NCBI RefSeq assembly: GCF_026898135.2
Contig: NZ_CP114035.2
Location: forward strand, 2,149,501 to 2,213,500
Direction of reading: 5' to 3'
DNA: 64,000 nucleotides
Source of the DNA: Pseudomonas fortuita
GTDB taxonomy: Bacteria; Pseudomonadota; Gammaproteobacteria; Pseudomonadales; Pseudomonadaceae
Shown here: piece after piece, positions 40,965 through 56,609 of the stretch
How positions within the stretch are numbered: the first letter of the stretch is position 1
How the letters are laid out: every line of letters starts with the position of its first letter
Translations under genes and position numbers: made by a program
Notes under the pieces: generated by a model
Database searches by the model: none
Told to the model about the DNA's origin: nothing
What the model saw: only the letters and a program-made list of their open reading frames with translations

Positions 40965-41810
40965 TCAGGCGGGTAATGCCGAGTGAGCGCATGCCTGCCG
41001 ATACGCCCCTGGTGTCACCCCGTAGGCCTGCTTGAACTGCCGGCTCAAATGGCTCTGGTCGGCAAAGCCAAGGTCGAACGCCACCTCCGAAGCGGTCAGG
41101 CCGCTCTTCAGCATTTCCCGGGCGCGGACCAGGCGCCGCTGCTTCAGCCAGGCGTGCGGCGGCTGGCCGGTGGCCTGGCGAAACACCCGGGCGAAGTGGA
41201 AGGGCGACAGGTTGACGGCTGCCGCCAGCGCTTCGAGCGAGGGCGGGTCGGCCAATTGGCTTTCCAGCAGTTCGCGGGCGCGGGCCACGGCCAGGGGTTC
41301 GTGGCCGGGGGCCGAGGGTTCGGCGCATTGCCCGTGCCGCTGCACCAGGGCCAGTACCGCCTGGCGCCAGGCGGTCTGTTGCTGCAGGGCGCTGGCGCCG
41401 TTTTCGGACAACTGATGGAGTTGGCTGAAGGCGATGGCCAGGGCCGGGTCGTGGATCACGCTGTCCTTGAAGCTGGGCATGCCGTGGCGGCCCAGTTCCA
41501 GTTCGTCCAGTACACCGGTGACCCGCTCGTGCTCGGGGTAGAAGCCGCGATAACGCCAGCCCGCCTCATGGGCGGTGGCGCCGGTATGCAGCTCGTCGGG
41601 GTTGATCAGCACCATGCTGCCGACCGGCGCCAGGTGCTCACTGCCCCGGTGCCAGAAGCGCTGGGCGCCGGATTCGATCACGGTGAATACATAGCCTTCA
41701 TGCACATGCGGGGCGAACCGCTGCTGGACGTAGCGCGCGTGCAGCATCTCGACGTCGCCCAGGGCCGGCGCTTGCCAGAGGTGTGTCTGTTCGCGCAGGG
41801 GCGGGTTCAT
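40965..41810 (-). CDS. AraC-family regulator of the azlCD operon
   Basis: Regulator of 281 residues. Cupin-like sensor (FAPHVHEGYVFTVIESGAQRFWHRGSEHLAPVGSMVLINPDELHTG) and an AraC DNA-binding domain (PPSLEALAAAVNLSPFHFARVFRQATGQPPHAWLKQRRLVRAREMLKSGLTASEVAFDLGFADQSHLSRQFKQAYGVTPGAYR), typical of regulators beside amino-acid exporters. Its ATG overlaps the azlD stop by four bases, so it is third in an azlC-azlD-regulator operon and probably controls it. Confidence 0.9.
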   Translation of the reverse strand: MNPPLREQTHLWQAPALGDVEMLHARYVQQRFAPHVHEGYVFTVIESGAQRFWHRGSEHLAPVGSMVLINPDELHTGATAHEAGWRYRGFYPEHERVTGVLDELELGRHGMPSFKDSVIHDPALAIAFSQLHQLSENGASALQQQTAWRQAVLALVQRHGQCAEPSAPGHEPLAVARARELLESQLADPPSLEALAAAVNLSPFHFARVFRQATGQPPHAWLKQRRLVRAREMLKSGLTASEVAFDLGFADQSHLSRQFKQAYGVTPGAYRQACAHSALPA

Positions 41811-42121
41811 GCCAGCCAGCTGCGTAGAAGGAAGAAGATCAACATGCTCACCAGCATGCTCAGCAACACGCTGCGGGTCAACAGTACCAGGGCGATGGCC
41901 ACCAGAGAACCCAGCAGGTAGGGGTTGAGCAGGCTCAGGTTGAGCTGGTGGTCGGGCATGAAGATGATCGGGCCGCAGATGGCAGTGAGCATGCCCGGCA
42001 CGGCAAAGCCGAGGAACTGCCGGGCGTTGGAGCTCAGCCGCAAGGGGAGCCGTGGCTCCAGGAACGCGTAGCGGTTGAGGAACACAATGGCGCCCATGGC
42101 GAAAATCAGGATCCAGGTCAT
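41807..42121 (-). CDS. azlD: AzlD-family transporter small subunit
   Basis: Membrane protein of 104 residues with about four hydrophobic segments (MTWILIFAMGAIVFLNRYAFLEP, FLGFAVPGMLTAICGPIIFMP, LNPYLLGSLVAIALVLLTRSVLLSMLVSMLIFFLL). It matches AzlD, the small partner of AzlC in branched-chain amino-acid export. Its start overlaps the azlC stop and its stop overlaps the regulator's start, each by four bases. The exported compound here could be a branched-chain amino acid or an analogue. Confidence 0.88.
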   Translation of the reverse strand: MTWILIFAMGAIVFLNRYAFLEPRLPLRLSSNARQFLGFAVPGMLTAICGPIIFMPDHQLNLSLLNPYLLGSLVAIALVLLTRSVLLSMLVSMLIFFLLRSWLA

Positions 42122-42810
42122 GCTCGGGCTCCGGCAAATTTCTGGCAGATGAACCCGGCGCTCATGCCCAGCAGGCCTGCGACCACCAGGGCGGTTTCCC
42201 AATGCCAGTGGCTGAACAGGACCGAGCAGAACAGCGACACGGCGACGCACACCACGGTCGGCAGGTTGCGCACCAGCGGTGCAATCAGGGCGACGAAGGT
42301 GGCGACGATGGAAAAGTCCAGGCCGAGTTGGTCCAGGTGGGGAATGTTCTGGCCCAGCAGGATACCGGCCAGGGTGAACAGGTTCCAGGCGACGTAGAAC
42401 GTCAGGCCTACCCCCAAGGCGTACCAGCGGTTGAATTGCTGCTGGTCGTACTGGCTGGTCAACGCGAAGAATTCGTCGGTCAGCAGAAAGCCCAGGCCCA
42501 ACCGCCAGCGCAATGGCTGGCTGGACAGCACCGGGCGCATCGACAGGCCATACAGCAGGTGCTGCGAGGTCAGCAGCAGGGTGGTGAGCAGGATCGACGC
42601 CAGGTTGGCGCCGCCCTTGAGCATACCAATGGCGACCAATTGCGCGGCACCGGCGAAGACGATGGCCGATAGCCCTTGCCCCTGCCAGGCACTGAGGTTG
42701 GCCTCGATGGCCATGGAACCGGCCAGCAGGCCCCAGGGGGCGACGGCCAGGGACAACGGCATGATGGCGATAGCGCCGTGAAGGAAGGCTTGGCGAGCGA
42801 TGTGGGGCAT
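42118..42810 (-). CDS. azlC: AzlC-family transporter large subunit
   Basis: Polytopic membrane protein of 230 residues. The AzlC pattern is clear: FLHGAIAIMPLSLAVAPWGLLAGSMAIEANLSAWQGQGLSAIVFAGAAQLVAIGML, LLTSQHLLYGLSMRP, LGFLLTDEFFALTSQY, and further hydrophobic segments to the C-terminus. It forms an exporter with AzlD. The start is set at the ATG of MPHIARQAFL (42810); the frame continues upstream but into non-coding-looking sequence next to a REP pair. There is no strong ribosome site, so the start is tentative. Confidence 0.88.
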   Translation of the reverse strand: MPHIARQAFLHGAIAIMPLSLAVAPWGLLAGSMAIEANLSAWQGQGLSAIVFAGAAQLVAIGMLKGGANLASILLTTLLLTSQHLLYGLSMRPVLSSQPLRWRLGLGFLLTDEFFALTSQYDQQQFNRWYALGVGLTFYVAWNLFTLAGILLGQNIPHLDQLGLDFSIVATFVALIAPLVRNLPTVVCVAVSLFCSVLFSHWHWETALVVAGLLGMSAGFICQKFAGARA

Positions 42811-42914
42811 GATGGCTGCAACGCGTGTACGAGGCAGATCAGCATGCCAGACGGGGCGGGGGATGGCTTGAACGATCTTGCTGATCGGGTTTGATTTCAA
42901 GGCAAACACAAGCC

Positions 42915-43009
42915 CTGTAGGAGCAGCCTCGTGCTGCGAAGAGGTCATTACAGCCGAAAACAATCTTTAGCCTTACCGGCCTCTTCGCAGCACAAGGCTG
43001 CGCCTGCAG
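42915..43009. repeat. REP inverted pair
   Basis: Arms 42915-42944 (ctgtaggagcagcctcgtgc...) and 42980-43009 are near reverse complements with a 35-base spacer. This is the ctgtaggagcagcc variant of the REP family. It lies between the Sel1-like gene and azlC. Confidence 0.82.
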
Positions 43010-43074
43010 TGATCGCGCGGAATACAAAGTTTGAGTGAGACAGTTGCCCAACAGGGACCGCGTCTGGCAGAGGA

Positions 43075-43770
43075 TCACGGGCGGCTGGTCAGGTGCTGTT
43101 GCGCTGTCACGCAGCCGTTGATGTCCACGGCTTTCTGCAGCAGGCTCAGACGGTGCGGTGGGTCCAGGTCGCCGAGCAGGCGGTACACCTCGGCCTGGTA
43201 GTCGCGCTGCCGGCCCCAGAGCATTTCGAGACCTTGAGGCTGGCTGCGGCTGCAGGTCAGGCGGGTGGCTGGCTGCGGGTAGTAAGGGGCGTACACGGTG
43301 GCCATGCTGGGGATGGCTTCCAGCGCTGCACGGTACTCGCTGCTGGTGTTGTAGGGCCGGCACCAGGTAGCGATCGCTGGCGCGGGTGCAGCAAAACCCT
43401 GCTTGAGACTGGCTTCGAGCAACGGGCAGGCGGCATCCGGTATTTGCGTGGCGGGCAGATAAGTCATGTAGTACAGCGCCAGGCGGTACTGCGCAACCGG
43501 GTGGCCCAGCTCTACCGACTTTTTCAACAGGGCAACCGCTGTCGGCAGCGTGTGGGCCATGGCTTGGCCCTGGCGGCTGAGCTCGGGGTCGCTGCCCAGG
43601 GCGGTACGCAGGGTGCTGGTATCGTCGCCCTGACGATCGGCCTGCTCCAGCAGCGGCAAGGCCTGGCGGTAGAGCAGGTCGGCGTGAGGGTCGATGCTCA
43701 CCTCCAGCGCGTGCGCAGCCAGCGGCATCAGGGCGACCAACAGCGGGGTCAGGCGTCGCGTGCGGCTCAC
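43075..43770 (-). CDS. Sel1-like periplasmic protein
   Basis: Exported protein of 231 residues. Signal peptide about 1-22 (LTPLLVALMPLAAHA-LEV). The body has helical repeat character like Sel1/TPR units (PLLEQADRQGDD, AVALLKKSVELGHPVAQYRLALYYM, CPLLEASLKQGFAAPAP), plus four or more cysteines that could form disulfides. Such repeats usually bind protein. The GTG at 43770 is chosen because GGGG lies about 6 bases upstream and it gives a compact signal peptide; a TTG nine codons earlier is less likely. The function is unknown. Confidence 0.72.
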   Translation of the reverse strand: MSRTRRLTPLLVALMPLAAHALEVSIDPHADLLYRQALPLLEQADRQGDDTSTLRTALGSDPELSRQGQAMAHTLPTAVALLKKSVELGHPVAQYRLALYYMTYLPATQIPDAACPLLEASLKQGFAAPAPAIATWCRPYNTSSEYRAALEAIPSMATVYAPYYPQPATRLTCSRSQPQGLEMLWGRQRDYQAEVYRLLGDLDPPHRLSLLQKAVDINGCVTAQQHLTSRP

Positions 43771-43908
43771 AGGCAAGCCCCGTGGACGGCCAGGCAAGGA
43801 GGGGCGGCTTCGATGTTAATAGCGGTCAAGCGTACGCCTCGGGAAAATCGGAACGACGGCCTATTCTAGCCACCCAAGGGGGGTGGCCGGAAGACCACTC
43901 GGCAACTG

Positions 43909-44991
43909 TCAGACGAGCTTGATCGGTGTGACCTTGCGTTGAGCGTGTTTTTCCTGGGCGAGGCCAAGTTTTGCGGTAATCACTTTGGCCAGGGCGTTGT
44001 TACCCAGGTCGTTCAGGTGCAGGCGGTCGATGAACAGGTCCGCGCCGAACACCGGCGAGCTGCTGAGCATGCTGTTCATGTCGTAGCAGGGCACTGGGTC
44101 GGCCTGGCTTTTGATACGGCGGAAAAAGGCCGAGTGCAACTGGCTATCGAATGCGCCGTCGAGCAGCCGGTCGAAGTTCGCCGGTTGTTGCTCCAGCGCG
44201 GCCAACATGGCTTGCTCACCAACGGGCAAGGTGTCCCGACACCAGGGCAGCAGCGGCTGCAGGATGAAGGTGAGGGTGGCATGGCTGTCTGCCAGCAACC
44301 TGTCCCACTGACGCAAGGTCCGGCCAATGCTGTCGGCCGCGCGAGCCAAGCGCTTCTCCGGGGGTGACAGCGGCCAGAAGGCCGGGGGGGCGGTCGCAGG
44401 TGTGGTCAGGGCCTGGCCGATGCGCCGCCACAGTGACTGCCGGCGGGGTGGTGCGGCAGGCTGCATGCCTTCGCTGAAGCTGTTGAGAAAGGCCTGGTAG
44501 GCCTTGGCGTGCTGTGGGTCGTTGGGGCTGGCGAGGACTTCGCACAGCGCTTCATGGGCCAGGCTGTTGAGGCCACTGAGCACCACCACGTGGCCGAGTT
44601 GGCCAAGGCGGTGCTGGTGAGTCAGGAACATCAGCAGTTCCTGGCCAGCATTGAGACCGCAACCGGCCAGGCTCAGCCACACCTCGCCGGTAAGGGCCGA
44701 CAGGTGCGAGGCCACCGTGTGCTCGTCGGAGCTGGCGCCGATACCCAAGGCGGTCGAGCCGCCGACCAGCAGGTTGATACGTGAGGCGCCGCCGCGTTCT
44801 GCCGCCGAAAAACGCTTGCCGGCAAAGTGGCTGTAGCGCAGGCCAAGGGCATCAGTGTTGATGGTTCCGGACCGGTAGCCGGTTTCATGCACGTGCACAG
44901 TGTGCGGCGCACGGCGGCTGCCCAACAGCAGAAAGCGTTGGTAGTCCTGCTGCAACGGTGAAGGAGACGGGCCTGTATCAGTCGCTGTCAT
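43909..44991 (-). CDS. SGNH-hydrolase-like protein
   Basis: Cytosolic protein of 360 residues without a signal peptide. The segment NLLVGGSTALGIGASSDEHTVASHL has a Ser in a GxS context like block I of SGNH/GDSL hydrolases, GLNAGQELLMFLTHQHRLGQLGHVVVLSGLNSL carries a G/N-type block, and DRLHLNDLGNNALAKVI near the C-terminus has the D-x-x-H pair of block V. Similar pseudomonad proteins are sometimes labelled inducer of phenazine A, but I cannot confirm that link. AGGAA precedes the ATG. It is the third gene of the YqcI/YcgG-LysE group, about 40 bases after the exporter, and may tailor a small molecule. Confidence 0.7.
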   Translation of the reverse strand: MTATDTGPSPSPLQQDYQRFLLLGSRRAPHTVHVHETGYRSGTINTDALGLRYSHFAGKRFSAAERGGASRINLLVGGSTALGIGASSDEHTVASHLSALTGEVWLSLAGCGLNAGQELLMFLTHQHRLGQLGHVVVLSGLNSLAHEALCEVLASPNDPQHAKAYQAFLNSFSEGMQPAAPPRRQSLWRRIGQALTTPATAPPAFWPLSPPEKRLARAADSIGRTLRQWDRLLADSHATLTFILQPLLPWCRDTLPVGEQAMLAALEQQPANFDRLLDGAFDSQLHSAFFRRIKSQADPVPCYDMNSMLSSSPVFGADLFIDRLHLNDLGNNALAKVITAKLGLAQEKHAQRKVTPIKLV

Positions 44992-45030
44992 GGTCTTTCC
45001 TTCTGTTGCACCGGGCGTTTCGCATCCGCT

Positions 45031-45657
45031 TCAGGCCGCCAGTTCGTTGAGGTTGTACAGCAGGCCGCCAGCGGCAATCAGCAGCAGGGCAACGCCCGAA
45101 GCCAGGCTGATCACCCGGTTGCTGCGCTGCGAAGCGATCTTGCCGATGGCGAAGATGTACAGGCTGAGCACGGCGAAATCGATGGCCACCCACAGCAGCG
45201 ACAACACCACCATGCTTTTGCCGAATGACTCGGTGATCTGGATGAACTGGGGGAAGAAGGCAATGAAGAAAATGATGTCCTTGGGGTTGGAAATGCCCAC
45301 CATGAAGCCTTGCAGCAGCCCGCCACGCCCGGTTTTGGGTGTTTCGCTCGTCGCGTCCGGGGCCGGCGCCTGCAGCACATCTCTTAAAGTGCCCACGGCG
45401 ATGTAGCCGATGAACAGGCAGCCCAGCAGGCTCATGGTGCTGAGCCATGCCTTGTCGATGGCGGCACTGGTGAGGATGATCCAGGCTGCGGCACCGATCA
45501 GCACCAGTGAGGCCCAGTTGGTGCCAACGGCAGTGAACATGGCCTTGCGCGAACCGGATGCAGCCGCGGTGTTGACGATCAGTGCCACTACGGGGCCTGG
45601 GGTGGCGATGAGCAGCAGGACGGTGAGGGCATAGGTGGCGGTGAGTGCGGTATTCAC
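45031..45657 (-). CDS. LysE/RhtB-family amino-acid exporter
   Basis: Inner-membrane exporter of 208 residues with six hydrophobic segments. It has the LysE/RhtB opening ALTATYALTVLLLIATPGPVVALIVNTAAASG, then NWASLVLIGAAAWIIL, GCLFIGYIAVGTL, and GFMVGISNPKDIIFFIAFFPQFI. The GTG at 45657 is chosen: it lies 2 bases past the stop of the YqcI/YcgG gene, and the frame upstream of it is antisense-like sequence of that gene. This tight coupling implies that it exports the product of that enzyme. Confidence 0.86.
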   Translation of the reverse strand: MNTALTATYALTVLLLIATPGPVVALIVNTAAASGSRKAMFTAVGTNWASLVLIGAAAWIILTSAAIDKAWLSTMSLLGCLFIGYIAVGTLRDVLQAPAPDATSETPKTGRGGLLQGFMVGISNPKDIIFFIAFFPQFIQITESFGKSMVVLSLLWVAIDFAVLSLYIFAIGKIASQRSNRVISLASGVALLLIAAGGLLYNLNELAA

Positions 45658-45659
45658 GG

Positions 45660-46448
45660 TCAGTTCTCGATCAGTAGGTCGGGTGTCGCCGGGTATGCGG
45701 CATGTGCGTGGAACGGGCAGCGTGACGGGTTGAGCGAGCCAGCCTCCTGCAACTGGTACTGCTTCCACTCGAAGTTGTCGTCATCGCCGAAAAAACCCAG
45801 GGTGTCAGGCATGACGCCGTCGTTGTAGTGGTGCACGCGCTCGCGAATACGCTCGCGGATTCGCTTGCCACTTTCGGTACTGGCGTTGGCCACTTCGTCG
45901 AAGTTCGCCCGTGGATTGATGACGAAGGTGATGTGATGCCCCAGGTTGCGGCTTTTCATCTGCTGGTGGCCGGGGAAGTTCATGTTGATGAACAAGGGCA
46001 TGCCGGCATAGCAGAACGACCAGCCGTTGTCGTCGGGGTCGGTCGGCATGCCCTGCGGCCATGGGTGCGGGTCGCGCGCATGCACGCCACGCAGCACCTT
46101 CCAGGCCAGTGCCTGCTGTTCGGCCAGGGTGTAATCGGCGGCGGTTTCGAGAAACACCACCAGCGGGCTGCCGATGCGCTGCTTGGGTGTGATCGGGGCG
46201 ATGGCGCGCACGTAGTCGGCCAGACCCTGGGCGATATCATCGGCGAGTTGCTCGGCACGGGCGAAGAGTATGTGGCAGGTTTCGCCGTTTACCGCCTTGC
46301 GGCCGAACAGGCAAGGGAAGTCGGGGTTGGCGAGAATACTGCGAAAGTGTTCTATGGTTTTGAAAGTCCAGTGTTGCGTAGTGCATCCATGTTCAACGGC
46401 CAGCTCTAGCGCATCCAGGCGATAGCAAGTTCCATATCCCGTAAACAT
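45660..46448 (-). CDS. YqcI/YcgG-family heme N-hydroxylase-like protein
   Basis: Protein of 262 residues in the YqcI/YcgG family (PF08892), which includes GntA, the heme-dependent N-hydroxylase of guanitoxin biosynthesis. Visible family blocks: FPCLFGRKAVNGETCHILFA, SPLVVFLETAADYTLAEQQALAWKVLRGVH, WPQGMPTDPDDNGWSFCYAGMPLFINMNFPGHQQMKSRNLGHHITFVINPR, RIRERIRERVHHYN and the C-terminal SRCPFHAHA, with the conserved CPF. Such enzymes hydroxylate a guanidine or amine nitrogen. No membrane segment is seen. GGGGAAA precedes the ATG. First gene of a group with a LysE exporter, divergent from a LysR regulator. The substrate here is unknown; arginine-like compounds are the obvious candidates. Confidence 0.85.
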   Translation of the reverse strand: MFTGYGTCYRLDALELAVEHGCTTQHWTFKTIEHFRSILANPDFPCLFGRKAVNGETCHILFARAEQLADDIAQGLADYVRAIAPITPKQRIGSPLVVFLETAADYTLAEQQALAWKVLRGVHARDPHPWPQGMPTDPDDNGWSFCYAGMPLFINMNFPGHQQMKSRNLGHHITFVINPRANFDEVANASTESGKRIRERIRERVHHYNDGVMPDTLGFFGDDDNFEWKQYQLQEAGSLNPSRCPFHAHAAYPATPDLLIEN

Positions 46449-46607
46449 GATTTCCCCAGGCGTTAATTAAGTGAACGTTCCAGTCATATGCAGGCAGGAT
46501 CTTGGTTATCTTTATTATTTACCTGCATTTTCCGAGACGCTCTCGACGTTGTAAAACGCGTGGAACTGTGACCTACTATTAGTCTTATTCATGCTCGGGA
46601 CGCCGCC
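46449..46607. promoter_or_regulatory. Divergent control region, YqcI/YcgG genes and LysR
   Basis: A 159-base, AT-rich gap. It holds a near-palindromic ATGCAGG (about 46489-46495) paired with CCTGCAT further right (about 46522-46528), around the AT-rich ttatctttattattta. This layout suits a LysR-type regulator bound between the two promoters. The exact site is not established. Confidence 0.45.
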
Positions 46608-47528
46608 ATGTCGGAACGGATTCAGGCCTTGCACGCCCTGCGTGCCTTCGAGGTGGCCTCTCGCTATGGCTCTTTTACCCGTGCGGCGGAAGAACTGGCC
46701 CTGACCCAGGGGGCGGTCAGCCATCACATCAAGACCCTGGAAGCCCTGTTTGGCTGCGACTTGTTCGAACGGCGTGGCCCGAAACTCAGCCTGACCGAGC
46801 ACGGGCGCCTGCTGGCGCAAGAGCTGAAAGTTGGCTTCAAGATCATCGAAAATGCTTGCGCATTGCTGCGCCAGGACCGCTACGGCTTGCGCTTGAAGGC
46901 GCCTTCCACGCTCACCGTGCGCTGGCTGTTGCGGGCGCTGGATGCGTTCAAGAAGGCCGAGGACAACTGCAGCGTGCAACTGTCCAGCGTGTGGATGGAC
47001 ATCGACACCGTGGACTTTTATTCCGAGCCCTACGACTGCGCCATTCTGTTGGCCAGCGGGCGTTTCCCCGCCGATATCGAGAGTTTCAAGCTGTTCGATG
47101 AGTGGTTGATCCCGGTGTGCCACCCCGATTACATGCCACAGGCCCAACCGGCCTTGGCCGACCTCGCCCAGTGCGAAATTCTGCACCCGTCACCCGACCG
47201 GCGCGACTGGCGGCGCTGGCTGGCGCGGATGGACGCACTGGACATCAGCATCGACCAGGGGCAGGTGTTCGATACGCTCGACCAAGGTATTTCGGCTGCG
47301 CAGCAAGGCCTGGGTATTTCGGTGGTCGACCTGGTGCTGGCCAGTGCCGACCTGCAGGCCGGGCGCCTGGCCACGCCGTTCAAGCATGCAGTGGCCACCG
47401 GTGACGGTTACTACATGACCTGGCTCAAGGCCAGCCCGAAAGCGCGGCAAATGCACAAGCTGCGCGACTTCCTGCTTGGCCAGGTGCCACCGCTGGCCCA
47501 CAAGGACATCAACTATCTGTACGGTTGA
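46608..47528 (+). CDS. LysR-family regulator (GcvA-like)
   Basis: Regulator of 306 residues. Helix-turn-helix: LHALRAFEVASRYGSFTRAAEELALTQGAVSHHIKTLEALFGCDLFERRGPKLSLTEHG, the GcvA-type opening. The effector domain follows (PSTLTVRWLLRALDAF, WMDIDTVDFYSEPYDCAILLASG, QGISAAQQGLGISVVDLVLA). It is divergent from the YqcI/YcgG-LysE-SGNH genes, so it probably controls them. Its 3' end overlaps the convergent LysR gene by 20 bases. Confidence 0.9.
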   Translation: MSERIQALHALRAFEVASRYGSFTRAAEELALTQGAVSHHIKTLEALFGCDLFERRGPKLSLTEHGRLLAQELKVGFKIIENACALLRQDRYGLRLKAPSTLTVRWLLRALDAFKKAEDNCSVQLSSVWMDIDTVDFYSEPYDCAILLASGRFPADIESFKLFDEWLIPVCHPDYMPQAQPALADLAQCEILHPSPDRRDWRRWLARMDALDISIDQGQVFDTLDQGISAAQQGLGISVVDLVLASADLQAGRLATPFKHAVATGDGYYMTWLKASPKARQMHKLRDFLLGQVPPLAHKDINYLYG

Positions 47529-48405
47529 ACACCCGCTCAAGCATGAAATCGATGAACACCCGTAACTTCGGCGGCACCTGCCGCCCGGACGGCCACAGCA
47601 GATAGAAACTGCCACGCCGCTCCATGAAGCTGTCGAGTACGCTGACCAGTGAGCCGTTGCCCAGTTCGCGACGTACGTTGAAGTCCGGCAGGCAGGTGAT
47701 GCCACGGTGGTTCAAGGCAAAGCAGACGCGTGTCTCGACATGGTTGCAAACCATCGAGATGGGGATGTCGTAGGCTTGTTCGGGGTGCTCCTGGCGCAGC
47801 GGCCAGGTTTCCAGCTTGCCATTGCTCGGGAAGCGATAATGCAGGCAGGTATGCGCGGCCAGGTCGCGCGGGTGCAAGGGTGTGCCGCGTTCGTGCAGGT
47901 ACCCGGGCGAGGCCACCAGGCGGTGCTGGAAGTGCCCCAGGAATTTGGCGTTGAGCCGCGAATCCACCGGCTGCCCACCGCGCATCACCACATCGAAGCC
48001 TTCGCCGACGATATCCACCATGCGGTCGGAAAAGTCCAGGTCCAGTTCCACCTGCGGATACAGCGCCATGAACTCCGCCAGCGCCGGCATCACCAGCGCT
48101 GTGACCTGTGGCATGCTGACGCGCAAGCGGCCACGCGGGCTTACGCTGGCCTGAGACAGCGCCTGCTCGGTGGCCTCGATTTCGGCCAGGATGCGCCGGC
48201 TGCGCTCGAGGAACAGCGTGCCTTCGGCGGTGAGGGTGATGCTGCGTGTGCTGCGGTGGAACAGGCGCACACCCAGGCGGCTTTCCAGGCGCGCAACGCG
48301 TTTGCCCACGGCCGAGGCACTGATACCCAGCGACTGGCCGGCGGCGACGAAGCTGCGGGTTTCGGCCACCCGGTTGAAGACCACGAAGCCGCTGAGGCTG
48401 TCCAT
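47509..48405 (-). CDS. LysR-family regulator (convergent partner)
   Basis: LysR-type regulator of 298 residues. N-terminal MDSLSGFVVFNRVAETRSFVAAGQSLGISASAVGKRVARLESRLGVRLFHRSTRSITLTAEG, then an effector domain with LDLDFSDRMVDIVGEGFDVVMRGGQP and GSFYLLWPSGRQVPPKLRVFIDFM, the pattern of the CrgA/DmlR-like group. The ATG at 48405 has AGGAA 7 bases upstream; the long frame upstream of it is antisense to the MFS gene. It is divergent from that MFS gene and probably regulates it. Confidence 0.9.
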   Translation of the reverse strand: MDSLSGFVVFNRVAETRSFVAAGQSLGISASAVGKRVARLESRLGVRLFHRSTRSITLTAEGTLFLERSRRILAEIEATEQALSQASVSPRGRLRVSMPQVTALVMPALAEFMALYPQVELDLDFSDRMVDIVGEGFDVVMRGGQPVDSRLNAKFLGHFQHRLVASPGYLHERGTPLHPRDLAAHTCLHYRFPSNGKLETWPLRQEHPEQAYDIPISMVCNHVETRVCFALNHRGITCLPDFNVRRELGNGSLVSVLDSFMERRGSFYLLWPSGRQVPPKLRVFIDFMLERVFNRTDS

Positions 48406-48523
48406 GCTGCTTTCCTGATTGCGGACATGGGTGTCCGGGGTGAGCGGCATTGTAGCCACCTTTTTCCGCAGTAGGCTTCCCTTGCAGACTGTCCGCCTTG
48501 TTTTCCTGCTCAAGGCACTTGCA

Positions 48524-49714
48524 ATGTCACAGACATCCTCCCCCCTGCTGCTGGATGCCAGCCGCGAACGCCTGCCCGTCAGCGGGCTGCTGGCGTTGGC
48601 CATGACCGGCTTTATCGCCATCCTCAGCGAAACCTTGCCGGCGGGCTTGCTCGACCAGATCGCCAACGGCATGCACATCAGCCAGGCCATGGCCGGGCAA
48701 TGGGTCACGGCCTATGCGCTTGGCTCGTTGCTGACGGCAATCCCGCTGGTGACCCTGACCCAGGGCTGGTATCGCCGGCGGGCCCTGTTGCTGGCGATCA
48801 TCGGCTTTGTGCTGTTCAACGGGCTGACTGCCTTGTCGACCTCCAACAGCGTGACCTTGGTCCTGCGCTTTTTCACCGGCGCTGCCGCCGGGCTGGCCTG
48901 GGGCCTGATCGCTGGCCATGCCCGGCGCATGGTGCCGGTGGCACAGCAGGGCCGGGCCATGGCGTTGGCCATGCTCGGGCAGCCGATTGCCTTGTCGCTC
49001 GGGCTGCCGATTGCCACCTGGCTGGGCGCCGGGCTGGGCTGGCGTGCAACGTTTGTTGTGGTCACCGTGGTGGCGTTGCTGCTGGTGGTGTGGGTGCTGC
49101 GCTCGGTGCCGGAGTACCCGGGGCATGCCGCCGGCAACCGCCGGGCGGCCAAGCAGGTGCTGCGCACGCCGGGGGTGTTGCTCGTGCTGCTGGTGATCCT
49201 GAGCTGGATCCTTGGCCACAACATTCTCTACACCTACATTGTGCCGCTGCTCGCGGCGGCCGGCATGGCTGCCGACATTGGCCCGGTGCTGATGGTGTTT
49301 GGCCTTTCGGCTCTGGCCGGAATTGGCATGGTGGGGTTGCTGGTCGACCGGCATTTGCGCACGCTGGTCTTGCTCAGCCTGGTCGGTTTTGCCTTGGCCA
49401 CACTGGCATTGGGGCAGGCGTCGTCGTGGTTGATGTACCTGAGCATCGCCCTGTGGGGCCTGACCTACGGTGGCGCACCCACCCTGCTGCAGACCGCCTG
49501 TGCCGATGCTGCGGGCGAGGGCGGAGATGTGGCGCAGTCGATGCTGGTGACCGTGTGGAACAGTGCTATCGCCCTGGGTGGGATCGTGGGGGGCGTGTTG
49601 CTCGCGGGGGGCGGGACCAAAGCCTTTGGCGCAGTGGTGTTGGTGTTGATCGCAGTGGCTTGGTCGCTGGCCTGGGCGGCGCGCAGAAGTGGCTTCGTGG
49701 CGGGGGCTCGCTAG
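48524..49714 (+). CDS. MFS transporter (AraJ/YdhP-like)
   Basis: Twelve-segment major facilitator of 396 residues. [84 protein letters not shown] is the pattern of the AraJ/YdhP/PbuE sugar and drug-efflux group. [25 protein letters not shown] matches the family C-terminal half. The start is set at the ATG of MSQTSS, with AAGG upstream. It is divergent from a LysR regulator. The substrate is unknown. Confidence 0.88.
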
Positions 49715-52187: not shown

Positions 52188-55100
52188 ATGCAGAACACTA
52201 GCAGTCAACTACCAGCTGCGGCCGATACCCTTGCCAGGGCGCAAGCCTGCCAGGACCAGTACATCGCGCAGCGGCTGCCGACCTGGATGATGCGGCTGAG
52301 CGTGGCAGAATTCACTCTCTTGACTGAGGCGCTGACGCAATTGCTGGCCTGCCGCGAAGGCCTGTCGGCAGCGCTGGCGCAGCTAAGCAACCTGGATGCA
52401 TTCACACAGACCTTGCTGCAAGAAGCGCTTGGCGCTCACGGCGAACTCGACGCTGATCGGCTGTACTTTCGCCAGTGGTACACCTTCACCTCGCCCACCG
52501 TCAGTTATGTGACCAGCAGGCTCCCAGTCGTAGGCAGCGACTACTACGAACTCCCCTTGCTCGAGGCCGCTCTGGGCAACTTTACCGCAGACCAGCTGCG
52601 CGAGCAGCCGCGTGGCAACTGCCTGGTGGATGAGCACGGCGTAAAGCGCAGTGAACTGTCTGCACTGGCCTTCGCCAAAATGTGTCGAGCGCTGGACCTT
52701 GGGCAGAAGTACCAGGCGCATCTGGACGCTGTCCTGCAGCCCGAAGTCAGAGGGTTGCTGGCGCGAAGGGAACGTTACAGCATGCTGGTAGATGCTCTGC
52801 AAGCCAGGGCGCAAGATGTGTTGAGCGCAGGCCAGCTGCAGTGGGTGGTGGAGTTTTGCCTTCAGGGCACGCTGGGCAAGCTCGAAGGCGCACCTGTTCA
52901 CATCCGGCAATTGAGGGTGCTCGGTTGCAGCTTGCAGCAGATCGTGGTGCTGGACGTGATCGATGAGGGCTTGCTGTACAACACCAGCAAGCTAGTGCTG
53001 GTGTATGTACCGGGTGACCCGCACGGCCCCTGGAGCGTGCGCAGCGACCTGGAAGATTATGCCCGCCGGGTGCTTGGCAACCGCCTGCGCGAAGAGGGCT
53101 ATCGGCGGTTTTTCAACCGTTTCGTGCGCCGTCGCGATAGCCAGCGATTCTTCTCGGCCGTCAGCGAACGGCTCGATGACGTTAGCGACTGGGCAACCAG
53201 GGACCTGGATGAGCAAACCTGTGCGTATCGCTTGCCGCTGTTCGAACATATCGCTGACGACTGGGTCGCCCGGATCAAGGACGATGCTGCAATCATTGCC
53301 CCACCCGTGGCCATGCTTGATCGCGAGGTCCAGGCAGCGCATAACCGCCGTTTGCGCGCTGAAGGCTGGACCCTGGCGGGGATCGCAGGGTACTTCGTGC
53401 CCGGCATTGGCGCGGTGTTGCTGGGGGTGATGGCCTGGGAGCTGCTTGAGCAGACGTTTCAGGCTGTCGGGGACTGGCAGGACAACGAGCGCAATGCGGC
53501 GCTGGCGCACCTGCTGAATGTAGGCAAAGGCCTGCTGGCTGTCGGGGCAACCGTCGCCGTGGTCGCCACGGTGCGTCGCGCCTGCATCGAGGTGGACAAG
53601 CTGGTGCCGGCGCAGTTGGCCAGCGGTGAAGAAAAACTGTGGAACGCAGACCTGGTGCCCTATCGCGGCGAAGCCCCGCCGGACGCGGCAGTGCTGGACA
53701 GGGAGGGGGTTCACCAGCTGGGCGAGCGTCGCTGGATCAGCATGGATGGGCACTGGTATGAGGTGAGTTGGCGCGACGCCGATGAACAGTGGCAACTGCT
53801 CCCTTATCAAGGGTATGCACCGCCGCTGCGTCACAACGGTGCCGGCGCGTGGCGGCTGTGGTGCGAGCAGCCCGCCGAGTGGGATGACACACGCCAGCTG
53901 TTTCGTCGTCTGGGCAGGCCATTGAGCGATCTCGATGACGCGCAGATCGATCAGTCGCTGGCCATCCATGGCCTTGATGACCAGCACTTGCGGGCTTGGC
54001 ATGTGTATGGCCGGGCGCCAGAAGCCGTGCTGGTGGACACCGTTTACCGCGTGCTCCTCGCCGGCCGCATCCGCACGTTGGTCAATCAGTTGCGTGAAGG
54101 CGTGGCCACCGCTGATGCGCAGTTGCTGGAGCGGGTGATTAATCTTCCTCAAGCCGCCGGCATGCAGGGTGCAGCACTGGCTGATGTGGCTTGGGCAGGG
54201 CGGCGAGAGCTGTTCCAGGAATTGTACGAAGAGCAGAATCCCGACACGCCGACGGGTCGCTCGCTACGCCGGGATTTTGCCAGCCTGCACCGCTTGGCGG
54301 CAGATGAGGTGCTGCGCGATGCCAGCGAGGATGACCTGCAGCAGCTTCGCGAGACCGGCCGCGTGCCCTTGTTCATGGCCGAGGCGGCAAGGTTGCAGGT
54401 TGCGCGGATCCGAATCGCGCGCGTGTATGAGGCGCTGAGCATTGATACACCGCAAAACCTCGACCTGGCGCGGGTGGTGCTGAATCTGTTGGGCCACGTG
54501 CGGGGTGCGCAGGGGCCTGGGTGGAGATTGTTTGACGGGGATGCCAGCGAGCCGTTGCTGACGATCGAGGGAACGGGGCAAACATTCGACCTGCTTCACC
54601 AGCATGGGGTGTTTCGCTTGCGCGATCCTGCGCGGCCTTCTGTCAGTCAGGCGGGCGAGCTGTTCGAGACCCTGGCTGCAGCCTATGACCACCCGTCTCA
54701 GGCGGCCATCGGCCAAGGCCATGCTTTCGTGCCCGCACTGCGCCAGGCGCTGGCGAATGTTGCAACCGGTCAAAGGCAGGCGGTGGTAAGTCTGCTTAGG
54801 CTGGAGCGGCCAAGCGGCTCGTTTTTCGCGCCGCAAAGGCTTGATGATGGCCGGATTGGCTACCCCCTTGCTGGCGGCCGGTTATGGGCCGCGCTGGGGC
54901 TGTCCAGACCGAGGGCGTCTCAGGCACGGCTTCGAGACCTGTACCCGGCCTTCAGTGATGAGCAGATCGGCCGCTGGCTGGCGCAAGACAACGCGCAAGC
55001 CAGGTTGCGTACGCTGGAACAGCAATTCGCACTGCTCAACACCCACCTGAACAGATGGGTACGCAATGCCTTTCCGACACCTGAGCTGGCCGCCCGGCGT

Positions 55101-56609
55101 GAGTTCAGAAAGGGCCTGACCGACTGCTGGCGCTTGCTTGTCCCCGAGCTTCAAGACAGTGCGGCTGTGCAGAGGGGGCGCTTCATGCTGACCCAGACCC
55201 GCAGCCGCTTGCAACAACTGCCAGTACTGCCGGCGCAAATAACTTTTCCGCACGTCTCAATCCTGGCCTTGCGCTCCATGCGCCTGGAGCGGATTCCGGA
55301 TGAGTTCCTGAGGGCATTTCCCAACTTGCGCAACCTGGAAATCACCCATTGTCGGCTCAGGCGTTTGCCTTTGCCGATGATGCTTACCCAAAGGCTGGAG
55401 GTGCTCGATCTGTCGGGTAACCAGATCGTGCTTGACGAAAGCCAGGCACTGATTCTTGCGGCTTGTCGTTCGCTGGTATACCTGAACCTTTCGGACAACC
55501 CTCTGGGCAGGGCATTTTCCGTTTTCGCAATGACCGAGCTACATGCGCTGCACCTGTCAGGCACCCAAATGCCCGAGTTGCCTTATGGGGTGCTCGAGGT
55601 GCCTGACCTGCAAACCCTTGACCTGAGTGACAACAGTATCTCTGCACTGCCCGATGGCTTTTACCGGTCGCAGCTATGGCGCGCAGGCAGAGTCGGGCTT
55701 TCTGGCAACCTGCTGGCGGCGACGCCTGAAGGGTTTTCGGCCTGGCACTGGCTTGAGGCAAGCCGGGTTCCCTACCGGCTGCGTTTTCTCGATGTATCGG
55801 CAGCTGAACGTCGCGATGAAATGGCCATGCTGTGGGTCCATCTTGAAGCCGACGAGCAATCGGCCGATTTCTTCAATACCCTGTCGGTGCTCACGGCCTC
55901 GGGAGCATTCAAGTTCTCTTCGACCGCGTGCGCGCTCGCATCCCGTGTGTTCGACATGTTCCAGGCGATGAACGAGGATGATGCACTCAAGCGTGAAGTG
56001 TTCGAACACGCCGCGGCGACCGACTGCCAGGATAACGCCACGGCCCGCTTCGCTGATCTGGAACTGCGGATGATGATATGGCGGGCGCAACGCGGCGGGG
56101 TTGCCCAGCAGCCTGAGCGGGCCTTGCTCTGTCTCGGTGGTCGGTTGTGGCGGTTGGCGTTGCTCGATCAGATTGCCGCAGAACACGCCCAACGGCAGGG
56201 GGCGGGCAATGAGTCGATCGAATTCGCCTTGGCATACCGGATCGCCTTGCGCAGGGCTTTGGATTTGCCTGGCCAGCCAGACGAAATGCTCTATCCAGGT
56301 ATTGCTGCGCTAAGCAAGCAGGATATTCGTGTGGCCCGGGACATGGTCCTGGCGGCACAGACCCGGGAAGGCGTTGCACATTATCTGTCACGTCAGTGGT
56401 TCTGGCAGGATTACCTGCGCAAGCGCTTCCCCGTTCGCCTGCAAGTGCCGCATCACATGCACGACGAACTGGAGCGGCTGATGGCCCTGGGTGGCCGGGA
56501 GGAGGAAATCGCACGGTTGCAGATCAGCAATCAGCAACGGGAGCACGCAGTATTGCTGCAGTTGACGCTGGAAGCGCTGGACATGCATTCGCCGCGTCTT
56601 CTCCAGTAG
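52188..56609 (+). CDS. Giant LRR/NEL-type E3 ubiquitin-ligase-like toxin
   Basis: Protein of 1473 residues with no N-terminal signal peptide. The large N-terminal region (about 30-850) resembles the DUF6543 dermonecrotic-toxin-like domain and includes two hydrophobic stretches (about 395-430, GYFVPGIGAVLLGVMAWELL; and about 445-465, LLAVGATVAVVATV) that could insert into a membrane. Leucine-rich repeats fill about 1020-1195 (LEVLDLSGNQI, LVYLNLSDNPL, LQTLDLSDNSI). The C-terminal part resembles the NEL (IpaH/SspH) E3 ligase domain, with catalytic-type Cys1280 and Asp1282 in ATDCQDNATARFADLEL. The ATG has GGAGG about 5 bases upstream. NEL effectors usually enter host cells by type III secretion; none is in view, so delivery is unknown. 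Confidence 0.82.
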   Translation: MQNTSSQLPAAADTLARAQACQDQYIAQRLPTWMMRLSVAEFTLLTEALTQLLACREGLSAALAQLSNLDAFTQTLLQEALGAHGELDADRLYFRQWYTFTSPTVSYVTSRLPVVGSDYYELPLLEAALGNFTADQLREQPRGNCLVDEHGVKRSELSALAFAKMCRALDLGQKYQAHLDAVLQPEVRGLLARRERYSMLVDALQARAQDVLSAGQLQWVVEFCLQGTLGKLEGAPVHIRQLRVLGCSLQQIVVLDVIDEGLLYNTSKLVLVYVPGDPHGPWSVRSDLEDYARRVLGNRLREEGYRRFFNRFVRRRDSQRFFSAVSERLDDVSDWATRDLDEQTCAYRLPLFEHIADDWVARIKDDAAIIAPPVAMLDREVQAAHNRRLRAEGWTLAGIAGYFVPGIGAVLLGVMAWELLEQTFQAVGDWQDNERNAALAHLLNVGKGLLAVGATVAVVATVRRACIEVDKLVPAQLASGEEKLWNADLVPYRGEAPPDAAVLDREGVHQLGERRWISMDGHWYEVSWRDADEQWQLLPYQGYAPPLRHNGAGAWRLWCEQPAEWDDTRQLFRRLGRPLSDLDDAQIDQSLAIHGLDDQHLRAWHVYGRAPEAVLVDTVYRVLLAGRIRTLVNQLREGVATADAQLLERVINLPQAAGMQGAALADVAWAGRRELFQELYEEQNPDTPTGRSLRRDFASLHRLAADEVLRDASEDDLQQLRETGRVPLFMAEAARLQVARIRIARVYEALSIDTPQNLDLARVVLNLLGHVRGAQGPGWRLFDGDASEPLLTIEGTGQTFDLLHQHGVFRLRDPARPSVSQAGELFETLAAAYDHPSQAAIGQGHAFVPALRQALANVATGQRQAVVSLLRLERPSGSFFAPQRLDDGRIGYPLAGGRLWAALGLSRPRASQARLRDLYPAFSDEQIGRWLAQDNAQARLRTLEQQFALLNTHLNRWVRNAFPTPELAARREFRKGLTDCWRLLVPELQDSAAVQRGRFMLTQTRSRLQQLPVLPAQITFPHVSILALRSMRLERIPDEFLRAFPNLRNLEITHCRLRRLPLPMMLTQRLEVLDLSGNQIVLDESQALILAACRSLVYLNLSDNPLGRAFSVFAMTELHALHLSGTQMPELPYGVLEVPDLQTLDLSDNSISALPDGFYRSQLWRAGRVGLSGNLLAATPEGFSAWHWLEASRVPYRLRFLDVSAAERRDEMAMLWVHLEADEQSADFFNTLSVLTASGAFKFSSTACALASRVFDMFQAMNEDDALKREVFEHAAATDCQDNATARFADLELRMMIWRAQRGGVAQQPERALLCLGGRLWRLALLDQIAAEHAQRQGAGNESIEFALAYRIALRRALDLPGQPDEMLYPGIAALSKQDIRVARDMVLAAQTREGVAHYLSRQWFWQDYLRKRFPVRLQVPHHMHDELERLMALGGREEEIARLQISNQQREHAVLLQLTLEALDMHSPRLLQ

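What the first reader, a model, noticed from the sequence alone, without database searches (positions are those of the whole stretch)
43909..47528. Compact group for making and exporting an N-oxidised small molecule
A YqcI/YcgG protein (family of the guanidine N-hydroxylase GntA), a LysE exporter starting 2 bases after its stop, an SGNH-like protein and a divergent GcvA-like LysR regulator form a neat unit. It looks like a minimal pathway: N-hydroxylate an amino acid (arginine is the obvious candidate), modify it, export it, and sense it. This may be an undescribed signal or toxin pathway. The nearby Sel1-like gene may or may not belong.
Basis: partly seen in the sequence, partly recalled or inferred. 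Interest (0 to 1): 0.72.

Follow-up and report, generated by a model that had tools for sequence, protein, structure and literature searches.

The report
Mobile module: hydroxylase, exporter, regulator
Three neighbouring genes, found together in Pseudomonas and on plasmids of unrelated bacteria, look like a minimal kit that oxidises a free amino acid (probably arginine) on nitrogen, pumps the product out and is switched by its own regulator; no experiment has tested this yet.

Summary
The core is real and wider than claimed: LysR / YqcI / LysE occurs in 38 of 38 close loci. It also occurs in 15 distant loci without the window's other genes: seven related Pseudomonas genomes, five genomes of two other genera, and plasmids of Thioclava, Pantoea and Klebsiella. 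In a phylum-wide control, none of 22 other YqcI genes had a LysE within the stretch examined. The enzyme is not GntA (48 bits, cut-off 145). It groups with AglA and has AglA's fold, heme-ligand cysteine and substrate gate. At two AglA positions it has the R and E whose introduction lets AglA hydroxylate free L-arginine at N-delta. The SGNH gene is a local addition, homologous to CgnD (crocagins) and apparently GvgA (formylaminooxyvinylglycine). Best reading: a minimal, sometimes plasmid-borne module that N-hydroxylates and exports a free amino acid, most likely L-arginine. Substrate, product and effector are inferred, not shown.

The parts
45660..46448 (-). YqcI/YcgG-family protein, predicted thiolate-heme N-hydroxylase (heme ligand C46; gate F153, R180, F183; heme-carboxylate contacts R167, R198, R202; E227, Q230)
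   Evidence: PF08892; AglA homology; residue map; AlphaFold pLDDT 91, Foldseek best five all AglA, TM 0.71-0.73 / 0.77-0.78
45031..45657 (-). LysE-family amino-acid exporter, GTG start 2 nt after the YqcI stop
   Evidence: PF01810 62 bits, cut-off 25.6; position; linked in 38 of 38 close loci and in the 15 distant triad loci
46608..47528 (+). divergent LysR-type regulator, GcvA-like
   Evidence: PF00126 and PF03466; GcvA subfamily model 223.7 bits, below cut-off 288; 52-59% identical to the LysR of the 15 distant triads
46549..46581 (+). conserved promoter-like/operator-like element in the divergent intergenic region: TTGTAA-N19-TACTATTA, reading towards lysR
   Evidence: 53 of 54 loci, window included, keep the two boxes exactly 19 nt apart (consensus chosen after looking at the same loci)
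43909..44991 (-). SGNH hydrolase of the CgnD / GvgA kind (S79, D322, H325); lineage-specific addition to the triad
   Evidence: homology to CgnD E 5.7e-71, Foldseek TM 0.67/0.80; 52 of 52 close homologues in 396 genomes of the window's genus, own genome included, lie next to a YqcI
43075..43797 (-). protein of unknown family ('Sel1-like'), may belong
   Evidence: 38 of 38 close loci, also where the flanks break (L029, L031, L034); no significant Pfam match; not found at the 15 distant triads

Best explanation
LysR, YqcI and LysE form one functional unit. The YqcI protein is a thiolate-ligated heme oxygenase that N-hydroxylates a free guanidino amino acid, most likely L-arginine, at an internal or terminal guanidine nitrogen, with electrons from a general cellular ferredoxin or reductase encoded elsewhere. 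The LysE protein exports the hydroxylated amino acid, which also protects the maker. The LysR senses arginine, the product or a related amino acid and controls the divergent operon. In the window's close relatives (P. putida group) an SGNH hydrolase of the CgnD/GvgA kind was added, probably to finish or hydrolyse a conjugate of the product. The exported compound is most simply an arginine antimetabolite or a diffusible signal. Shown by computation: gene linkage, predicted fold, catalytic residues, common descent of the triad. Inferred: heme binding, substrate, regiochemistry, export of the product, effector, ecological role.
For: Triad in 38 of 38 close loci and in 15 distant loci without the window's other genes: L057-L061, L065-L067, L153-L159; these are about six lineages, since the seven L153-L159 are close kin. 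Control: 0 of 22 other YqcI genes of a 398-genome phylum sample have a LysE-profile match nearby, also at a relaxed E of 0.01, while the profile finds divergent LysE proteins elsewhere. Labelled triad rows fall on one branch, support 100/98. C46, F153, R167 and R198 in 112 of 112 relatives, E227 in 111 of 112. Predicted fold matches AglA. AglA K196R, K225E and the double mutant gain N-delta-hydroxylation of free L-arginine (PMC12866846); the window protein has R198 and E227 there. ChmN of the same family makes N-delta-hydroxyarginine from free L-arginine in vitro (PMC11177257, passages). YqcI is also paired with LysE in Priestia and with amino-acid permeases on five other plasmids. Amino-acid oxygenase plus amino-acid exporter is published logic for secreted antimetabolites (PMC3684760; PMC4357302; passages). 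Intergenic element kept in 53 of 54 loci.
Against: R and E at those two positions are common across the family (E in 19 of 22 GntA-side and 8 of 10 other AglA-side rows; R in 17 of 22 and 5 of 10), so they are probably ancestral and not specific for free arginine. Q177 of AglA, which positions the guanidine, is N here. No reductase is among the nine neighbouring proteins scanned. LysE membership does not name a substrate. No member of this clade was assayed in any paper seen. The 22 other YqcI genes of the phylum sample stand without a LysE neighbour, and 10 further AglA-side genes lack the divergent LysR, so the partnership is a property of one clade.
Confidence: 0.58

Rival explanations
1. 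Same machine, other substrate: the enzyme hydroxylates another free guanidino or amino compound (homoarginine, agmatine, guanidinobutyrate or a non-guanidine amino acid) and LysE exports that.
For: AglA Q177 is N in this clade; other plasmid relatives have different amino-acid transporters, which suggests substrate diversity; known members act on arginine conjugates as well as on free arginine.
Against: The characterised members described in the passages read act on arginine or arginine-derived guanidines; the residues that hold the arginine chain and backbone in AglA (F152, R179, F182) are kept.
Confidence: 0.2
2. Detoxification: the LysR senses an incoming arginine antimetabolite (for example a plant one such as canavanine), YqcI hydroxylates it and LysE expels it.
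For: Regulator plus enzyme plus exporter is also resistance-gene logic; the module is on plasmids, one of them typed as conjugative; many hosts are plant-associated (recalled).
Against: The passages read place the characterised YqcI enzymes in biosynthesis, none in detoxification. LysE alone could export the analogue.
Confidence: 0.14
3. In the window's close relatives the four genes are a cut-down remnant of a larger gvg-like peptide-templated pathway, in which the SGNH protein releases a product from a small peptide; only part of it still works.
For: L191 carries a relative of the triad plus GvgC-, GvgF- and GvgA-like genes and a Lys-rich small peptide; SGNH is a homologue of CgnD, a leader peptidase.
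Against: The LysE of L191 is only about 23% identical to the window's. The distant triads scanned have no such genes, so the triad stands without them. None of the 38 close loci has GvgC- or GvgF-like genes, yet the SGNH keeps S79, D322 and H325, against decay.
Confidence: 0.12
4. Chance neighbours without joint function.
For: Among the close loci the wider neighbourhood is syntenic too, so linkage there alone proves little.
Against: Same order and orientation at unrelated sites in several genera and on three plasmids; a search of the own genome with the window LysE gave eight matches, itself included, so adjacency by chance is unlikely.
Confidence: 0.03

Closest known systems
AglA / AlpD (argolaphos biosynthesis, Streptomyces monomycini)
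   Same: YqcI/YcgG fold, Cys heme ligand, Phe152/Arg179/Phe182 gate
   Different: AglA acts on aminomethylphosphonate-arginine, inside a phosphonate cluster; K196 and K225 are R and E here, Q177 is N; no LysR-LysE partners seen in the passages read
ChmN (chalkophomycin), DcsA (D-cycloserine)
   Same: same family; ChmN hydroxylates free L-arginine in vitro; DcsA proposed for free L-arginine
   Different: both belong to natural-product pathways that consume the hydroxyarginine; their sequences were not compared here
GntA (guanitoxin), NCBIfam NF041366
   Same: same Pfam family
   Different: window protein 48 bits against cut-off 145; the GntA side is a separate branch with H for R179 in 21 of 22 rows
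IDO operon (Bacillus thuringiensis) and Hil operon (Pantoea, Pseudomonas)
   Same: free amino-acid hydroxylase with amino-acid exporter (RhtA); LysR regulator in Hil; proposed secreted antimicrobial amino acid
   Different: dioxygenases acting on isoleucine, not a heme guanidine oxygenase; unrelated genes
gvg (formylaminooxyvinylglycine) and amb (AMB) clusters of Pseudomonas
   Same: toxic amino acids with LysE-type exporters; GvgA is an esterase-like protein whose P. chlororaphis counterpart is IopA, and one relative of the window SGNH bears the name Inducer of phenazine A
   Different: the window unit lacks gvgB-, gvgC- and gvgF-like genes at the locus; no NRPS among the neighbours scanned
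CgnD (crocagin leader peptidase, PDB 8a2n)
   Same: homologous SGNH protein, catalytic residues at matching places
   Different: no small peptide ending like GvgB found beside the window SGNH; crocagin enzymes were not searched for

Membership tests
YqcI/YcgG (PF08892) | score over the curated cut-off | tested here: met
   203.2 bits, cut-off 27
YqcI/YcgG heme guanidine hydroxylases | heme-ligating Cys (AglA C44) and substrate gate (F152, R179, F182) | tested here: met
   C46, F153, R180, F183
YqcI/YcgG heme guanidine hydroxylases | sandwich fold of AglA | tested here: met
   predicted model pLDDT 91; five AglA entries the only PDB hits with E at or below 0.001
YqcI/YcgG heme guanidine hydroxylases | binds heme and N-hydroxylates a guanidine | not testable with these tools
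   needs protein and assay
GntA (NF041366 equivalog) | score over cut-off 145 | tested here: not met
   48 bits; four of the 22 phylum-sample proteins were scanned, and all four are over it
AglA orthologues | argolaphos cluster context and K196/K225 substrate contacts | tested here: not met
   no phosphonate genes among the nine proteins scanned; R198 and E227
LysE exporters (PF01810) | score over the curated cut-off | tested here: met
   62 bits, cut-off 25.6
GcvA (NF008352) | score over cut-off 288 | tested here: not met
   223.7 bits: GcvA-like LysR only
CgnD/GvgA SGNH hydrolases | homology and Ser-Asp-His triad | tested here: met
   E 5.7e-71 to CgnD; S79 invariant, D322 and H325 nearly so in 38 aligned sequences, one of them truncated. 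The GvgA sequence itself was not held; that link rests on cluster order and the published domain table
gvg-like clusters | gvgA, gvgB, gvgC, gvgF together | tested here: not met
   only a GvgA-like gene; none of 38 close loci has GvgC- or GvgF-like genes by tblastn, no Lys-rich SIYP peptide beside the window SGNH
graminine-type pathways | SznF-like partner beside the YqcI gene | not tested
   no SznF sequence was searched for

The most novel reading that the evidence does not exclude
An undescribed, sometimes plasmid-borne secretion module found across alpha- and gammaproteobacteria makes free N-hydroxy-L-arginine with a single non-P450 heme-thiolate enzyme and exports it as the final product. 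It would be the smallest known guanidine-hydroxylation pathway, with a cognate LysR that lets makers and non-makers sense the compound. Separate lineages have built further tailoring onto it: an SGNH hydrolase in the P. putida group, and gvg-like peptide-templated chemistry in the L191 genome.
Probability: 0.33. Interest if true: 0.75.

Novelty: new variant of a known kind. Interest (0 to 1): 0.57.

Why it matters
The characterised YqcI/YcgG enzymes named in the passages read work inside natural-product pathways. A stand-alone enzyme-exporter-regulator triad would show that N-hydroxylated arginine (or a close relative) is itself a secreted bacterial product, and gives a small system in harmless P. 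putida for testing substrate, export and sensing. N-hydroxyarginine is the intermediate of NO synthase and an arginase inhibitor (recalled), so a bacterial source of it would matter for microbe-microbe and plant-microbe interactions. The SGNH link to CgnD and GvgA also suggests that gvg-like clusters are peptide-templated, a testable idea for the small ORF gvgB.

Tried and rejected
GntA membership: rejected by score and tree. AglA-type phosphonate context: none among the proteins scanned. Phage origin: no match in 50,697 phage records. Riboswitch or other Rfam RNA near the operon: none at gathering threshold over 42000-49000. The sigma-70 consensus scanner does not see the 19-nt-spaced element, since it allows spacers of 16-18 nt only; it found one other site, at the chance level. 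A T-N11-A palindrome for LysR was sought in the window's intergenic region and not found. A GcvA-type CTAAT box (recalled motif) is in nine of the ten close rows printed but is not kept at that place in the distant triads. Literature: the lists returned (40 of 269 shown) held no title or abstract describing a LysR-YqcI-LysE unit; only the papers named in this report were opened, and the library lacks most subscription journals. Free N-delta-hydroxyarginine as an antimetabolite of Bacillus is recalled; one search did not yield the source. Bacillus subtilis ycgF-ycgG adjacency is recalled and was not checked. A GvgB-like peptide elsewhere in the own genome was not searched.

Corrections made on checking: a notebook entry said R198 and E227 in 112 of 112; the table gives 112 and 111. 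The 112 are the relatives of at least 215 aa among the 120 listed (147 found; 8 listed ones dropped as short). The absence of the window's other genes at L153-L159 had been seen only over 3.8 kb and was then tested over 13-15 kb, as was the sensitivity of the LysE profile on divergent LysE proteins.
Full report
What is there. The YqcI/YcgG protein (45660-46448, minus) scores 203 bits against PF08892. A LysE-family exporter (45031-45657, minus) begins with GTG two bases after its stop. A 360-aa protein without a Pfam match (43909-44991, minus) follows after about 40 nt. A LysR-type regulator (46608-47528, plus) is divergent. The window is part of a 6.3-Mb single-contig genome with one PF08892 match.

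Is it a unit? In 38 close loci from named records (37 titled Pseudomonas, two of them MAGs, and one titled Pantoea sp.; that they are the P. putida group is my reading of the names), LysR, YqcI and LysE are present in 38 of 38, the 360-aa gene in 37 (missing in L020) and the 'Sel1-like' gene in 38. This alone is weak, because AzlCD, an AraC regulator and a family-B DNA polymerase are syntenic in most of these loci too. The strong evidence is outside. The same order and orientation, LysR divergent from YqcI followed closely by LysE, is found in 15 distant loci: five genomes of two other genera of the family (L057-L061), seven more distant genomes of the window's genus (L153-L159; the query relative P0060 is named P. 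syringae pv. tagetis), and plasmids of Thioclava (L065), Pantoea vagans (L066) and Klebsiella pneumoniae (L067, typed as conjugative). Thirteen window proteins were used as tblastn queries there; beyond the three, only weak matches of the second LysR to LysR paralogues appear. Identities are 36-50% for YqcI, 45-52% for LysE and 52-59% for LysR. The seven L153-L159 are close kin (85-88% to P0060 apart from the identical one), so the 15 loci are about six lineages.

Controls. In a phylum-wide sample, 22 of 398 genomes had a PF08892 match (23 matches, the window's own included). None of the 22 others has a LysE-profile match in the about 15 kb examined, at E 1e-5 or at E 0.01, and the profile does find divergent LysE proteins such as those of L191, L194 and L197. 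Four of these 22 proteins were scanned against NCBIfam and all four are over the GntA cut-off. The association is thus a property of one clade, not of the family. A plasmid search gave 48 records with relatives, of which I opened 12: three are triads. Of ten further AglA-side genes without a divergent LysR next door (nine on plasmids and L160), five have an amino-acid permease beside them (L068, L101, L102, L104, L106; L068 also has a LysE 2.2 kb downstream), one has an overlapping LysE (Priestia, L099), and four have neither within the limits used (L100, L103, L105, L160; L105 has a weak LysE match 1.3 kb upstream). A class-wide search gave one more relative, at 31% identity with a stop inside (G470), without LysE in its 7.3-kb contig. 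In the tree of 63 rows the 16 rows labelled as triad lie on one side of one branch (100/98), counted against the labelled rows; 41 rows carry no label and several relatives of unknown context lie inside. AglA and L105 are long branches, so their exact place is unsure.

The enzyme. The only significant solved relatives are the AglA entries. The AlphaFold model (pLDDT 91) has five Foldseek hits with E at or below 0.001, all AglA. PMC12866846 (abstract and parts 1-3 of 7 read) reports C44 as thiolate ligand, salt bridges from R166, K196 and R200 to the heme, a gate of F152, R179 and F182, and that K196R, K225E and the double mutant let AglA hydroxylate free L-arginine at N-delta. In the window protein these positions are C46, R167, R198, R202, F153, R180, F183 and E227. 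Among 112 relatives C46, F153, R167 and R198 are in 112 and E227 in 111. So the protein naturally has the two changes that convert AglA to free arginine. The caution is that E, and mostly R, are also common on the GntA side (19 and 17 of 22) and in other AglA-side proteins (8 and 5 of 10), so AglA's lysines look derived and the window state ancestral. Q177 of AglA is N here. ChmN of this family makes N-delta-hydroxyarginine from free L-arginine in vitro with spinach ferredoxin and its reductase (PMC11177257, passages read). Free L-arginine is therefore the best single guess, not a result. No reductase is among the neighbours scanned.

The regulator and its DNA. In 53 of 54 loci, the window included, the intergenic region holds two boxes exactly 19 nt apart, consensus TTGAAA-N19-TACTATGA reading towards lysR (window 46549-46581). 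Scores against this consensus are 12 to 14 of 14 in 52 of 54 loci and at most 11 in 54 shuffled sequences. The consensus was chosen after looking at the same loci, many of which are close relatives, and the shuffle was mononucleotide. It may be the lysR promoter, the LysR operator or both.

The SGNH gene. It is absent from the distant triads. In 396 genomes of the window's genus there are 52 homologues of at least 64% identity, own genome included; 52 of 52 lie within 2.5 kb of a YqcI gene, while 11 of the 63 genomes with YqcI (398 searched) lack it. It thus belongs to the unit in the window's close relatives but is not part of the ancestral core. Its nearest solved structure is CgnD, found also by sequence profile at E 5.7e-71. 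CgnD is the hydrolase that frees the crocagin core from its leader, with Asp325, His328 and Ser79 at the active site (PMC10070186, passages), matching D322, H325 and S79 here. One relative bears the name 'Inducer of phenazine A'. PMC8067088 (passages) equates iopA and iopB of P. chlororaphis with gvgA and gvgC, and lists gvgA as a lipase/esterase, gvgB as a Lys-rich small ORF, gvgC as a heme-oxygenase-2 protein, gvgE and gvgK as LysE exporters and gvgF as a NodU carbamoyltransferase. Loci with distant SGNH relatives show that order: SGNH, PF14518 protein, amidinotransferase-like, LysE, carbamoyltransferase in L196 and L197 (in L196 by tblastn only). The genome behind L191 joins both worlds: LysR (68%), YqcI (43%), PF14518 protein, LysE (about 23% to the window's), carbamoyltransferase and SGNH (47%) in a row. 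None of the 38 close loci has the carbamoyltransferase or PF14518 gene. The own genome has a carbamoyltransferase at 34% identity elsewhere and weak matches to the PF14518 protein. Published gvg-like clusters share gvgA, gvgB, gvgC and gvgF and are mostly uncharacterised (PMC8064604, section 20).

How it most likely works. Arginine (or a similar free amino acid) is hydroxylated on the guanidine by the heme-thiolate enzyme, the product leaves through LysE, and LysR sets the level by sensing arginine or the product. Secreted amino-acid antimetabolites with an exporter are described in related settings: the IDO and Hil operons (PMC3684760, passages), AMB with AmbA (PMC4357302, passages) and formylaminooxyvinylglycine (passages). 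In the window's close relatives the SGNH hydrolase may act on a conjugate; what it acts on is unknown. Only the genes, their linkage, the predicted fold and the residues are shown.

Novelty. The family, the exporter class and the exporter-oxygenase logic are known. The free-standing LysR-YqcI-LysE triad was not described in any title or abstract listed, within an open-access library. I call it a new variant of a known kind.

Noticed in passing
   Followed up: partly
L191, L194, L197 beside the SGNH genes: Small Lys-rich ORFs of 25-29 aa with a shared SIYP near the C-terminus; with a relative of the leader peptidase CgnD beside them, they look like peptide precursors and fit the published description of gvgB. 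None was seen in the two L195 stretches examined; L196 was not examined.
   Followed up: partly
L066:10702-15238 (Pantoea vagans plasmid): Downstream of the triad: a DUF1543 protein, then a TonB-dependent siderophore receptor and an ABC substrate-binding protein; a metal-related product is conceivable there.
   Followed up: no
L099:6962-14705 (Priestia megaterium plasmid): YqcI and LysE overlap by 8 nt, followed by an MFS gene and an ornithine carbamoyltransferase, ATP-grasp and TPP-enzyme set, possibly an uncharacterised biosynthetic cluster.
   Followed up: no
L104:920-10288 (Mesorhizobium huakuii plasmid): YqcI with amino-acid permease and radical SAM protein, near an argininosuccinate-synthase-related gene and a 2OG-Fe dioxygenase.
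   Followed up: no
window 52188-56609 (+): 1473-aa protein with ToxA_N, leucine-rich repeats and a C-terminal NEL E3-ligase domain; it looks like a secreted effector-type protein.
   Followed up: no
window 40965-42963 (-): AzlC and an AzlD-like gene (branched-chain amino-acid exporter type) with an AraC-family regulator just downstream of the unit; AzlC and AraC confirmed by Pfam, AzlD by position only.
   Followed up: no
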